Below are positions 19,531-41,357 of a stretch of 64,000 bases of DNA, piece after piece; the first letter of the stretch is position 1; every line of letters begins with the position of its first letter. The notes under the pieces were generated by a model. The model was not told the origin of the DNA, searched no databases, and worked only from the letters and a program-made list of their open reading frames with translations. Position numbers and translations under genes: made by a program. The stretch comes from Natrinema sp. DC36 (GTDB taxonomy: Archaea; Halobacteriota; Halobacteria; Halobacteriales; Natrialbaceae), in the NCBI RefSeq assembly GCF_020405225.1, contig NZ_CP084472.1:682001-746000 (forward strand), in the 5' to 3' direction.

Positions 19531-19632
19531 ATGGGCAAAGCACTGACCCAAACCCGCACCAGATTCGTGCCAGTCGCGGGGGCCTCGACACCATACGAGG
19601 TTAGCACGGATCAATTTGGGGAGATAGTGTAG
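19531..19632 (+). CDS. Possible leaderless micro-protein overlapping the tRNA-like gene (33 aa)
   Basis: A 33-codon frame starts ATGGGC at the expected leaderless position, like the MG-starting genes at 8669, 15708, 16375, 17491 and 21857. Its stop codon (19630-19632) lies inside the D arm of the tRNA-like structure. It may be a genuine short gene or simply the 5' part of a non-coding transcript. Confidence 0.3.
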   Translation: MGKALTQTRTRFVPVAGASTPYEVSTDQFGEIV

Positions 19633-19736
19633 TGGCAGCACGGTGGTCCCGACTCGTCTGAAAAAGCGAGCGGTCAACGGATAAAATTCGTTGGAGAATC
19701 TAACCACAAACGTGGGTTCGAATCCCACTCTTTCCA
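19618..19736 (+). tRNA. Interrupted tRNA-like gene, identity unassigned
   Basis: Acceptor strands GGGGAGA (19618-19624) and TCTTTCC (19729-19735) pair over 7 bp with two G-U pairs. A D arm GTGT-AGTGGCA-GCAC (19627-19641) and a canonical T arm GTGGG-TTCGAAT-CCCAC (19712-19728) are in place, with TA at positions 8-9. The anticodon stem would be GTGGT (19643-19647) / ACCAC (19703-19707), but 55 bases lie between instead of 7. These fold into two hairpins. No U33 and no bulge-helix-bulge intron site is found, so it may be an unusual intron-bearing tRNA, a tRNA-like RNA or a damaged tRNA. Confidence 0.45.
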
Positions 19737-36661: not shown

Positions 36662-36859
36662 ATGACCGACCGCGACTCGAGCTCGAGCGGGCCCGAAGCC
36701 GCCGGTGACGGCGACGACGATCGAGACGAGCGCTCGAGCTTTCCGCCGTGTCCGAAGTGCGACGACGCGGTGATCACGGTGACGACTCGCGGGCCGATGG
36801 AGCATATCGCGGGTCCGTGTGGCTGTCGGCTCAGCCCCGGCCAGGTCCAGCGGCTCTGA
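36662..36859 (+). CDS. Small zinc-ribbon protein (65 aa)
   Basis: A disordered acidic/Ser-rich N-terminus (residues 1-28) precedes CPKC and, 23 residues later, CGC, a compact metal site common in haloarchaeal micro-proteins. Function unknown. Confidence 0.6.
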   Translation: MTDRDSSSSGPEAAGDGDDDRDERSSFPPCPKCDDAVITVTTRGPMEHIAGPCGCRLSPGQVQRL

Positions 36860-36915: not shown

Positions 36916-37084
36916 CACCACGAAAGCCCCTTTCAGTCCCACCCGCGGTGGCATCCCGAGCAGCCGATACGGGTGGGACTGAAAGGGGCTGCTGGCTCCG
37001 GGAAGACGGACGACGCAAGCACGCGACCGACGGGAGCGCGCACAGCGAGTCCCTCGACCGGAGCCAGCAGGGGCTTTCGTGGTG
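36916..37084. repeat. Nested inverted repeats forming a three-way junction
   Basis: Three perfect pairs fit together: outer CACCACGAAA (36916-36925) with TTTCGTGGTG (37075-37084); a 20-base arm GCCCC...CACCCG (36926-36945) with its complement at 36970-36989; and CTGCTGGCTCCGG (36989-37001) with CCGGAGCCAGCAG (37058-37070). Together they draw two hairpins on one closing stem, as DNA cruciform or RNA. GGGGC copies at the junctions are shared between arms. The region is the 5' side of the methyltransferase gene. Confidence 0.8.
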
Positions 37085-37178
37085 TTCGTAGTGGGTGGAG
37101 AATACTCACAAGAGACCGATATGCAACTCCTCGATGGGTTACGAACATTTTTTGCGGGTTCACCGACGAAAGCCGACG

Positions 37179-37886
37179 ATGGCCGGGGATCAAGGTCGCG
37201 ATCGCGATCGAACACACAGCCACGACGACGAGTGCACCCGCCGCGCCGACGTGCGCGACACCTACGACCGGATCGCGACCCACTTCGCATCCACGCGGGA
37301 GTACGCCTGGCCCGAAGTCGAGGCCTTCGTCGACGCCCACGCGACCGAGCGCGCCGGCGTCGGACTCGATCTCGGCTGCGGCAACTGCCGCCACGCCGAA
37401 CTCCTCGAGCCCCGCCTCGAGTCGGTGATCGGCCTCGACGTCAGCCGCGGCTTGCTTGAGACGGGCCGGGAGCGCGCGCTCGAGCGCGGGTTCGACGTCG
37501 AGTTGGTTCAGGGGGACGCGTCGACGCTTCCGCTAGCCGACGACAGCATCGACATCGCGGTTTACGTTGCCACGCTGCACCACCTACCGACGCGGGCGGC
37601 CCGCCGGGCGAGTCTGGACGAACTCGCACGAGTGCTCGCCCCCGACGGCCGCGCGCTGGTCAGCGCGTGGTCGACCGCACACGACCGGTTCGAGGAAACC
37701 GAGGGATTCGATACGACGGTCGAGTGGACCCTTCCAGGCGGCGAGCCGGTCGATCGATTCTACCACATCTACGCCCCCGACGAGTTCGAGGCCGATCTCG
37801 ACGAGAGCGACCTCGCACTACTCGAGTGGGAACTCTCGAGCGGGAACTGTTACGCGACGGTCGCAGGTGCGGAGACGGGCGACTGA
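37179..37886 (+). CDS. Trm9/ALKBH8-like SAM-dependent methyltransferase (235 aa)
   Basis: Motif I GLDLGCGNCRH (about residues 63-73) binds S-adenosylmethionine. Just before it, TYDRIATHFASTREYAWPEVEAFV matches the signature of the Trm9 family, which methylates the wobble-uridine side chain of tRNA in eukaryotes and has archaeal relatives. Usual length for the family. The ATG at 37179 is used, since the upstream extension to 37095 runs out of the inverted repeat and lacks similarity. Confidence 0.75.
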   Translation: MAGDQGRDRDRTHSHDDECTRRADVRDTYDRIATHFASTREYAWPEVEAFVDAHATERAGVGLDLGCGNCRHAELLEPRLESVIGLDVSRGLLETGRERALERGFDVELVQGDASTLPLADDSIDIAVYVATLHHLPTRAARRASLDELARVLAPDGRALVSAWSTAHDRFEETEGFDTTVEWTLPGGEPVDRFYHIYAPDEFEADLDESDLALLEWELSSGNCYATVAGAETGD

Positions 37887-39090: not shown

Positions 39091-39561
39091 CTACGCCTCT
39101 CCCGAGTAGTCGTTCGGATCGAGTACACACATTTCGTCGAACAGGTCCTTCACACGTCGTTCGATCTCGTCACGTGTCTCCCGCACTCGCTCGAGGTCCT
39201 GGCTATCCGGATCCTCGAGCGCCCAATCACGGACATCGACCGCTTCGCCAACGTCACCGACGTCGAGTGTCGAGCAGCCCATCGTAGCGACGTAGTCGCA
39301 GGAGCGCAATTCGTCGAGCGTGATCTCTCGTGGCGTCCGGTCGGAGAGGTCAAATCCCGCTTCGTCCATCACGTCGACGACTTCGTCGTGCACGTGGTCG
39401 GCCGGGTGGGTTCCTCCAGTGAGGATTTCGACGCGGTCCTCGAGACCACGTCGCTCCCGTTCCCGCTCCGCAAAGGCCGTGGACATCTGGGAGCGACCAG
39501 CGTTCTGGACGCACATGAAGGCGATGCGAATCGGATCGTCTGCTTCAGTATTGGATGACAT
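39091..39561 (-). CDS. arsC: Arsenate reductase, low-molecular-weight phosphatase type (156 aa)
   Basis: The P-loop CVQNAGRSQM (C17, R23, S24) and a C-terminal Asp-Pro (LDPNDY) mark the low-molecular-weight tyrosine phosphatase fold used by thioredoxin-type arsenate reductases. The enzyme turns arsenate into arsenite, which Acr3 then exports. It lies 12 bases downstream of acr3 on the same strand. The acidic surface is haloarchaeal. Confidence 0.85.
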   Translation of the reverse strand: MSSNTEADDPIRIAFMCVQNAGRSQMSTAFAERERERRGLEDRVEILTGGTHPADHVHDEVVDVMDEAGFDLSDRTPREITLDELRSCDYVATMGCSTLDVGDVGEAVDVRDWALEDPDSQDLERVRETRDEIERRVKDLFDEMCVLDPNDYSGEA

Positions 39562-39573
39562 TGTTCTTGGTGG

Positions 39574-40734
39574 TTAGTCGTCAGTCGTCGGCTCAGGTGC
39601 GGACGAATCGAGACTCCCGGTATCGAAGCCGCCCCAGTCGAACGTTCGCTGGAAGTACAGTGCAACGTTGACCAGCGCAAGCAAGACGGGGACTTCGATA
39701 AGCGGGCCGACGACGGTCGCGAACGCGACGCCGGAGCCGACACCGAATACCGCGACCGCAACCGCGATCGCCAGCTCGAAGTTGTTCGACGCCGCCGTGA
39801 ACCCGATGGCGGTCGTCGTCGAGTAGTCCGCGCCGATACCGCGCCCCATCCCGAAGCTCACGAGGAACATCACGACGAAGTAGATCGTCAGCGGTACCGC
39901 AATCAACAGGACGTCGCCCGGCGAGGCGACGATGGCGCCCCCTTGCGTGGCGAACATCACGATCACGGTGAACAGCAGCGCGACCAGCGTTAGCGGGTCG
40001 ATCTTCGGAATGAACTCATCATCGTACCAGGCTTCGCTTTTGACGCGGGTCCCAACGTAGCGGGTCAGGAAGCCGCCTGCGAACGGAATTCCAAGGAAGA
40101 TGACGATTGCCTCGAACACCTGCATCGGCGTGATGTCGAACGTCGTGATCCCGGCGGCGAGTGACTCCATACCGAGCAGCGGTGGGAGGAACAGCGCGAA
40201 GAACCAGACGTACACCCCGTAGGTGATGATCTGGAAGAGACTGTTGAACGCGACCAGCCCCGTCACGTACTCGGTCGACCCTTCGGCGAGTTCGTTCCAG
40301 ACCAGGACCATCGCGATACAGCGAGCCATCCCGATGAACACGAGCCCGAGGAAATATTCGGGACGCGCCGGCAGGCCGGGAACGAGCCCGCTGAAGAAGA
40401 CGACCGCGAGCCCGAACATCAGCGTCGGGCCGATGAGCCAGTTCTGGATGAGACTCAACCCGAGGACGCGCCAGTTGCTGAACACGGTCCGGAGTTGCGA
40501 GTAATCGGCCTTCGCCAGTGGCGGATACATCATCGCGATGAGGCCGATCTCGACGAGATGGAAGTCCTGAATCGGTTGGGTCACCGACGGGGCGACGAAG
40601 CCGAGGCCGACCCCGAGCGCCATCGCGACGAAGATCCAGACGGTCAGGTACTTGTCCAGAAAGTCCATCGACCGCGGATCTCCACAGTCCGGACAGTCAC
40701 AGTCCGGTCCGTGCTCGTGTTCGACGTTACTCAT
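39574..40734 (-). CDS. acr3: Arsenite efflux transporter Acr3 (386 aa)
   Basis: Ten predicted membrane helices of the bile/arsenite/riboflavin transporter superfamily are present. Acr3 signatures are MYPPLAKADY (about 91) and FIGMARCIAMVLVWNELA (about 153-170), including the conserved Cys. A short extra N-terminus with HGPDCDCPDCGD looks able to bind metal. The gene overlaps arsR by 8 bases and precedes arsC, giving an arsR-acr3-arsC operon that reads leftward. Confidence 0.92.
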   Translation of the reverse strand: MSNVEHEHGPDCDCPDCGDPRSMDFLDKYLTVWIFVAMALGVGLGFVAPSVTQPIQDFHLVEIGLIAMMYPPLAKADYSQLRTVFSNWRVLGLSLIQNWLIGPTLMFGLAVVFFSGLVPGLPARPEYFLGLVFIGMARCIAMVLVWNELAEGSTEYVTGLVAFNSLFQIITYGVYVWFFALFLPPLLGMESLAAGITTFDITPMQVFEAIVIFLGIPFAGGFLTRYVGTRVKSEAWYDDEFIPKIDPLTLVALLFTVIVMFATQGGAIVASPGDVLLIAVPLTIYFVVMFLVSFGMGRGIGADYSTTTAIGFTAASNNFELAIAVAVAVFGVGSGVAFATVVGPLIEVPVLLALVNVALYFQRTFDWGGFDTGSLDSSAPEPTTDD

Positions 40735-41128
40735 CGGTGGTTACACTGCCTTCGAGGACAGTGACGAGTGCCACCGCGCGGTTGGTCGCCCGGTACTTCT
40801 TCCAGCGGCCGTCCTTCCAGCTCTCGACGAGGCCAGCGTCGACGAGCGACGAGAGCGCGTGACTGAGCCCGCTCTCGGTCACGTCGACGACCGCGTTCAG
40901 TTCACAGACGCAGAGTTCTTCCTGCGCGGCGACGAGAACGCGGACAAGCGTGTAGCGTGTCTCGTTAGAGAGCGCCGATAAGACGTCGAGTTCGGCCGCA
41001 GCCTGTGCCGTCCCGAGTCCGGCCTCGAGCGTGGACAGTTCATCGAGTCGGCGCTCGACGTCCTCGTCGCGACACTCCCCGAGTTCGTCGTCGAGGTACC
41101 GCTGTAGTCGTTCGGTCGCTTGAGCCAT
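40727..41128 (-). CDS. arsR: ArsR-type transcription regulator (133 aa)
   Basis: A winged helix (residues about 50-125: LDVLSALSNETRYTLVRVL, ELCVCELNAVVDVTESGLSHAL) with the C-x-C pair in ELCVCEL at the start of the recognition region, the arsenite-sensing site of ArsR. Binding of arsenite releases the operator and derepresses the operon. First gene of the arsR-acr3-arsC unit. Confidence 0.88.
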   Translation of the reverse strand: MAQATERLQRYLDDELGECRDEDVERRLDELSTLEAGLGTAQAAAELDVLSALSNETRYTLVRVLVAAQEELCVCELNAVVDVTESGLSHALSSLVDAGLVESWKDGRWKKYRATNRAVALVTVLEGSVTTDE

Positions 41129-41357
41129 CAACAGCCACTTGACTATATCATCAATTAACTATTGCGGAAGATGCCCGGAAGACATACCGATTCGCCCCCA
41201 AATAGAGAGTCTGGCGTGCAGGAGTGTGCATATTTCGCTTCGAAGTATTCGTGGACTCACCTGAGTAGACTTTCAATTGGATTGTGAGTGAACCGAAGAT
41301 GGTGTGCGCTGACCACCACGCCGCTGTTAGTCAGAACGACAATCGAGGCTATCACGA
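41129..41357. other. Divergent regulatory region between arsR and arsD
   Basis: The arsR operon (left) and the arsD remnant (right) start from this 229-base gap, so both promoters and the ArsR operator should be here. No clear dyad was identified by eye. Confidence 0.35.

What the first reader, a model, noticed from the sequence alone, without database searches (positions are those of the whole stretch)
36916..37084. Three perfect inverted repeats making a three-way junction
Outer stem, a 20-bp hairpin and a 13-bp hairpin fit without conflict in 169 bases. The shared GGGGC/GCCCC boundaries mean that arms can also pair alternatively, so the structure could switch or branch-migrate. The GTGGGACTGAAAGGGG core is reminiscent of short dispersed sequences in haloarchaeal genomes, a recollection that needs checking. 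Possible roles are a mobile palindromic element, a recombination or replication site, or a regulatory RNA for the methyltransferase at 37179.
Basis: partly seen in the sequence, partly recalled or inferred. Interest (0 to 1): 0.72.

Follow-up and report, generated by a model that had tools for sequence, protein, structure and literature searches.

The report
Ancient haloarchaeal transposon hitchhiker, structured core
The three-way fold is an old pair of copies of a short non-coding DNA element found between genes across salt-loving archaea; relatives of it still show the marks of being copied by an IS6-type transposase, while its core sequence is kept nearly unchanged long after those marks have decayed.

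Summary
The repeats are real (fold z = -11.7). They are two head-to-head copies of one repeat family. The right copy is complete: core GGTGGGACTGAAAGGGGC, an 80-nt hairpin, box GGGGCTTTC. The left copy has lost its hairpin between GGGGC repeats.

The family is order-wide: 236 of 293 Halobacteriales genomes, none found outside the order in a phylum sample, and not in Rfam. 25 of 32 base pairs show two-sided changes.

In other lineages, copies (about 211 bp single, 339 bp doublet) carry terminal inverted repeats GGTAGTGTTCAGATAAG and 8-bp target duplications. IS6-family transposons of about 693 bp have the same ends. I therefore read the family as MITEs moved by IS6 transposases. This copy's terminal repeats have decayed, so it is a relic and not an intact MITE.

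At orthologous sites in congeners (Natrinema), core and box stay 95-98% identical while flanks fall to about 60%. The hairpin is lost, swapped or pair-compensated, and the centre between the cores is flipped in two species. So the core seems constrained in place, for an unknown purpose.

A dedicated methyltransferase regulator is not.

The parts
36916..37084 (.). Whole feature: decayed head-to-head doublet of the repeat family (two cores facing each other, both 3' boxes pointing outwards)
   Evidence: same doublet at the orthologous site in G018 and G015; intact doublet with terminal repeats and 8-bp duplication elsewhere (L123)
36926..36943 (-). Core GGTGGGACTGAAAGGGGC of the left copy
   Evidence: Exact match, G000:C1:718926-718943
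36922..36930 (-). 3' box GGGGCTTTC of the left copy, sharing GGGGC with its core: the hairpin has been deleted between the two GGGGC repeats
   Evidence: Sequence; in G018 this arm still carries a full hairpin
36944..36971 (.). Centre between the two cores; lies in the opposite orientation in G015 and G010
36972..36989 (+). Core GGTGGGACTGAAAGGGGC of the right copy
   Evidence: Exact match, G000:C1:718972-718989; covariance model match 36948-37094, 134 bits
36990..37069 (+). 80-nt hairpin of the right copy (outer stem about 13 bp, then short helices with conserved internal loops)
   Evidence: the same hairpin sits in the left arm in G018
37070..37078 (+). 3' box GGGGCTTTC of the right copy; its CTTTC pairs with GAAAG of the core
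   Evidence: Sequence; compensated pairs in other copies
37179..37886 (+). Neighbour, not part of the element: SAM-methyltransferase-like gene; its ATG is 100 nt after the right box, a typical spacing for this family

Best explanation
The feature is an old, decayed head-to-head doublet of a non-coding mobile element family of Halobacteriales. Shown for family members elsewhere: the unit (about 211 bp single, about 339 bp doublet) is bounded by 17-bp inverted repeats of the type GGTAGTGTTCAGATAAG and flanked by 8-bp target duplications, and about 693-bp IS6-family transposons have the same ends. Inferred: an IS6 transposase moves the short elements in trans, which makes them MITEs. Shown in Natrinema: copies stay at the same intergenic sites between species; their hairpins are deleted between GGGGC repeats, exchanged, or altered in a paired way; the centre of the doublet inverts; the terminal repeats are unrecognisable; yet core and box are almost unchanged. 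Inferred: the inverted arms recombine or template-switch as DNA hairpins, and core and box have some in-place role, probably through the fold of the + strand. What that role is remains open (low confidence); the confidence given is for the IS6-MITE origin.
For: Dispersed family. Terminal repeats over-represented, up to 58 per genome with reversed control near 0. Family copies with terminal repeats and 8-bp duplications: single L309/L139 GTCCGGCC, doublet L123 CAACGATC; 4 of 25 copies with both ends at most 5 mismatches have duplications with at most 1 mismatch, against 0.17% expected. IS6 transposons with the same ends and 8-bp duplications, transposase named IS6 by NCBIfam at 196.6 bits, cutoff 125. 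Homology between copies in one genome stops near those ends. Empty site at L003 lacking core, hairpin, box and 50-60 nt on each side. Same-site deletion, swap and inversion. In-place constraint: core 94.9%, box 97.7%, flanks 63-69% identity.
Against: The window copy and the other own-genome copies tested have no recognisable terminal repeats or duplications, so their origin by IS6 transposition is by homology of core, hairpin and box only. Movement in trans is not shown. IS6 transposition does not obviously need a folded strand, so the conserved internal structure is not explained by it. Genomes G206 and G053 have many copies but no IS6 found at 1e-20.
Confidence: 0.8

Rival explanations
1. 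A structured non-coding RNA (own gene or untranslated-region element) with a host function, merely carried by MITEs in some lineages. The + strand RNA folds and is bound or processed.
For: Strong covariation with conserved internal loops, G-U 54 against A-C 19 in the outer stem, so one strand matters; core and box constrained in place; present in 236/293 genomes.
Against: No conserved promoter upstream in Natrinema copies; 62 of 117 copies have an upstream gene pointing away, so they are not read through in + sense from it; boxes persist around a plain short hairpin (L019) or no hairpin (L002 in G018/G021); few one-sided intermediates at orthologous sites.
Confidence: 0.25
2. A DNA-structure site (protein-bound hairpin or cruciform, recombination or chromosome-organisation site) that the cell keeps, independent of transcription.
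For: Centre inversion and hairpin loss or swap at the same site; copies occur in all gene orientations with core and box kept; own copy L006 lies at a synteny breakpoint.
Against: The G-U over A-C bias is not expected of a symmetric cruciform. No binding protein identified. Copy number varies from none to more than 70 per genome.
Confidence: 0.25
3. A palindromic element moved by a Y1 (HUH) transposase: a REPIN/RAYT pair or an IS200/IS605-derived PATE.
For: Near-terminal palindromes and head-to-head doublets resemble REPINs; repeat-mediated core deletion is described for PATEs (PMC3119063).
Against: Has inverted ends and 8-bp duplications, which PATEs lack by definition. No Y1 transposase in the window genome nor in G028, which has at least 10 copies.
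Confidence: 0.04
4. A cis-regulatory RNA dedicated to the methyltransferase at 37179.
For: Lies 100 nt upstream in the same direction.
Against: The same spacing occurs before unrelated genes; the doublet is absent or degenerate at the same site in G009, G043, G012, G003, G017, G023 and G010 although the methyltransferase is kept.
Confidence: 0.03

Closest known systems
[quoted passage not shown]
   Same: Short, non-coding, inverted ends shared with a known transposon, target duplications, intergenic.
   Different: Order-wide; carries a conserved structured core-hairpin-box module; exists as singles and head-to-head doublets; old copies keep the module after the ends have decayed.
SMR-A short mobile repeats of Haloquadratum (PMC3119063)
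   Same: About 100 bp, prominent inverted repeats, prone to sit within palindromes of other elements.
   Different: SMRs have no target duplications and ends unrelated to transposons; here 8-bp duplications and IS6 ends are seen. Their sequences could not be compared.
PATEs / IS605-type elements of Haloquadratum (PMC3119063)
   Same: Near-terminal palindromes; core deletion between direct repeats leaving a terminal-only copy.
   Different: PATEs lack inverted ends and target duplications; both are present in this family.
REPINs/BIMEs, ERIC and BOX elements of bacteria (from memory, not tested)
   Same: Intergenic, structured, inverted doublets or modular hairpins, long-lived at the same sites.
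   Different: REPINs depend on RAYT (Y1) transposases; this family shows IS6 ends and 8-bp duplications, and lies in archaea.

Membership tests
MITE of an IS6-family transposon (the repeat family) | Short and non-coding | tested here: met
   Units of about 211 bp (single) and 339 bp (doublet); longest frames in the short units are small; 0 of 117 copies inside genes
MITE of an IS6-family transposon (the repeat family) | Terminal inverted repeats matching an autonomous transposon | tested here: met
   GGTAGTGTTCAGATAAG-type ends on L309/L139 and L123 and on about 693-bp IS6 elements
MITE of an IS6-family transposon (the repeat family) | Target duplication of the size typical of the transposon (8 bp) | tested here: met
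   L139 GTCCGGCC, L123 CAACGATC, exact; 4/25 with at most 1 mismatch against 0.17% expected
MITE of an IS6-family transposon (the repeat family) | Mobilised in trans by that transposase | not testable with these tools
   Needs a transposition assay
Intact MITE (the window copy itself) | Recognisable terminal inverted repeats and target duplication | tested here: not met
   9 and 10 mismatches of 17, random median 9; no duplication
IS200/IS605-derived PATE or REPIN/RAYT | Y1 transposase available; no inverted ends or target duplication (PATE) | tested here: not met
   No Y1 transposase in the own genome or in G028; family has inverted ends and duplications
Any Rfam RNA family | Match at the gathering score | tested here: not met
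   Only tRNAs in the window at gathering; below-threshold chance hits to the perfect hairpin

The most novel reading that the evidence does not exclude
An IS6-borne module (core, looped hairpin, box) was domesticated early in Halobacteriales and now serves a host function at many intergenic sites through the fold of one strand, with hairpins that can be exchanged or regenerated while the boxes stay fixed. It persists in lineages without recognisable terminal repeats or IS6 (for example G053).
Probability: 0.3. Interest if true: 0.75.

Novelty: new variant of a known kind. Interest (0 to 1): 0.5.

Why it matters
It explains a sequence scattered through most haloarchaeal genomes that Rfam does not hold and that I found in no paper available here. 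It also gives a natural test of exaptation: many copies in which transposon ends have decayed but a structured core has not. The same-site hairpin swaps and centre inversions would let one study palindrome instability in high-salt archaea directly.

Tried and rejected
Rfam at gathering and loose thresholds: nothing but chance hits to a perfect hairpin. Viral contigs: no exact core; phage records: chance hits only. G-quadruplex made by the G-tracts (GGGTGGG...GGGG...GGGG): ViennaRNA with quadruplexes allowed did not choose it in four copies, and the sister family lacks those tracts. Y1 transposase partner: absent from the window genome. Terminator or insulator: flanking gene arrangement roughly matches intergenic background. 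Specific methyltransferase regulator: absent at the same site in several congeners. Resemblance of GTGGGAnTGAAA to the 3' end of some haloarchaeal CRISPR repeats is from memory and was not tested. Papers: a search for the core sequence found only two unrelated papers; the IS6 + MITE + haloarchaea search gave one Sulfolobus plasmid paper.

Full report
Observation. The three inverted repeats are present at 36916-37084 as described, and the 169 nt fold far better than shuffles (z = -11.7). The three-way junction is best read as two copies of a single repeat, head to head. The right copy (+) is core GGTGGGACTGAAAGGGGC (36972-36989), an 80-nt hairpin (36990-37069) and box GGGGCTTTC (37070-37078). 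The left copy (-) has the same core running straight into the box, with the hairpin missing between the GGGGC repeats. The centre is 36944-36971. The doublet lies between a 65-aa Zn-ribbon-like ORF (36662-36859) and a methyltransferase-like gene (37179-37886), in a stretch bounded by tRNA-Ala and tRNA-Gly.

Genome. The window belongs to the genus Natrinema. This is inferred: relative G017, of the same genus, carries a match at C2:168163-168235, the same coordinates as on the Natrinema caseinilyticum record NZ_CP100446.1.

Repeat family. A covariance model from 60 copies (R1) matches 236 of 293 Halobacteriales genomes and 71 of 87 genera. In a 295-genome phylum sample, all matching genomes fall inside the order. 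No Rfam family matches. The exact core is absent from viral contigs but similar copies lie on many haloarchaeal plasmids, almost always in unannotated stretches.

Structure. The consensus is a GAAAG/CTTTC helix, a GGG/GGG internal loop, a variable 10-13 bp stem, then short helices separated by conserved internal loops. 25 of 32 pairs show changes on both sides. Cells paired are 94.3% against 73.6% in shuffles, and the covariation score is 0.508 against 0.150; slid controls give 0.05-0.08. The basal helix itself is compensated (GGAAG/CTTCC, CAAAG/CTTTG). Among 154 full copies, the outer stem has 54 G-U against 19 A-C mismatches, under a filter that treats both alike, which points to the + strand as the one that folds. 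These copies are not independent, so the ratio is indicative only.

Context. With a home-made gene finder, 0 of 117 copies lie inside genes. Where a start codon faces the box end, 50 of 76 lie 80-140 nt away. The frequencies of gene orientations are close to those of ordinary intergenic gaps. This does not suggest a role tied to one gene or to termination.

Mobility. Within the MAG QS_9_67_17, homology between copies starts at about -43 to -48 before the core in most pairs, and for the pair L043/L050 it ends about 44 nt after the box. That is where GTGTTCAG and CTGAACAC lie. The 15-mer TAGTGTTCAGATAAG is present up to 58 times per genome, with a reversed control near zero. Loci fetched by it include about 693-bp transposons with a 211-aa transposase. 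NCBIfam names the transposase IS6 (NF033587, 196.6 bits, cutoff 125); Pfam gives DDE_Tnp_IS240. IS copies carry 8-bp target duplications (L308 AGCAGACG, L313 CCCGTTCG; L320 GTCGAGCG, L321 GTCGATCG). Copies of this family carry the same kind of ends and duplications. The single L309 (the same site as L139) is about 211 bp with GTCCGGCC on both sides. The doublet L123 is 339 bp with CAACGATC on both sides. Of 25 copies whose two ends both match with at most 5 mismatches, 4 have duplications with at most 1 mismatch, against 0.17% expected from mispaired flanks. A sister family with core CCTGGCGGAATGAAAGGGC and the same ends also shows 8-bp duplications (L303, L305, L307). I read the family as MITEs moved by IS6 transposases. 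Movement in trans is inferred, not shown.

The window copy. It has no recognisable terminal repeats (9 and 10 mismatches of 17; random median 9), nor do the other own-genome copies tested. It is therefore a relic by descent of core, hairpin and box, and fails the defining test of an intact MITE. The own genome does hold IS6 elements, including L331 with an 8-bp duplication GATTTAAA.

Same-site evolution. At the window site the doublet is present in G000, G018 and G015, degenerate in G010, and absent in G009, G043, G012, G003, G017 and G023. G018 carries in its left arm the hairpin that G000 has in its right arm, with a different hairpin on the right. The centre is inverted in G015 and G010 relative to G000 and G018. 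At other own sites the element is at the same place in most of six species. There the hairpin may be swapped (L007, G000 against G018/G021) or cleanly deleted (L002 in G018 and G021). At L003, G043 and G009 lack the whole insert, including about 60 nt upstream and 55 nt downstream of the boxes. Across orthologous comparisons the core is 94.9% identical and the box 97.7%, against 63-69% for aligned flanks (54-59% counting gaps) and 45% for unrelated sequence. Site-specific variants (AATG at L003 in both G018 and G021) argue against homogenisation by gene conversion. Stem changes at orthologous sites are 23 on both sides, 2 on one side with pairing kept, 8 broken. Many double and few single changes fit palindrome correction by template switching at least as well as slow RNA compensation.

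What it does. Family-level transposition is well supported. The in-place role is not known. Arguments for a constrained role are the identity of core and box after the ends have decayed, and genomes such as G053 with 10 or more copies but no terminal-repeat 15-mer and no IS6 at 1e-20. Arguments against a standard RNA gene are the lack of a conserved promoter, the mixed gene orientation and the survival of boxes around a plain hairpin (L019) or none (L002). I do not choose firmly between an RNA role and a DNA-hairpin role; I give each about one in four.

Comparison with the literature. The closest description is the Haloquadratum catalogue of MITEs, PATEs and SMRs (PMC3119063). PATEs are excluded by the terminal repeats and duplications; SMRs have inverted ends not related to transposons and no duplications. 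REPIN, ERIC and BOX analogies are from memory. Supplementary sequences of that paper could not be read here, so overlap with a named HqIRS family cannot be excluded.

Limits.

Noticed in passing
L302, L303, L305, L307 (loci): A sister element family with core CCTGGCGGAATGAAAGGGCGAG...GAGGGCTTTC, also as singles and doublets, with the same terminal repeats and 8-bp duplications.
   Followed up: partly
own copies in L003, L007, L010, L013; also L055, L066, L068, L080: Extra hairpin arrays are nested inside the element, often at the same point (GCGC|AGCGAG) in different genera.
   Followed up: no
L006 (G000:C1:1695443): This own-genome copy sits at a synteny breakpoint: its two flanks are adjacent in G000 but far apart in five congeners.
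   Followed up: no
G000:C1 about 336/343 kb, 811/815 kb, 1905.7/1907.2 kb, 3802.6/3804.4 kb: Own-genome copies cluster in pairs a few kb apart, some of them facing each other.
   Followed up: no
upstream of cores in L040, L059, L069 and others: A second type of upstream sequence (GAGTCGGCTGGGGAGG...TGAGGCTGCGGTGC) precedes many copies, with its reverse complement downstream in L076 and L086; possibly another dispersed repeat.
   Followed up: no
window 39091-41131, - strand: Neighbouring genes look like an arsenic cluster by their translations (ArsC-type phosphatase, ACR3-like permease, ArsR-like regulator) (not tested against family libraries).
   Followed up: no
window 19618-19736, + strand: Rfam finds a tRNA stretched over 119 nt that ARAGORN does not call, perhaps a tRNA with an intron.
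   Followed up: no
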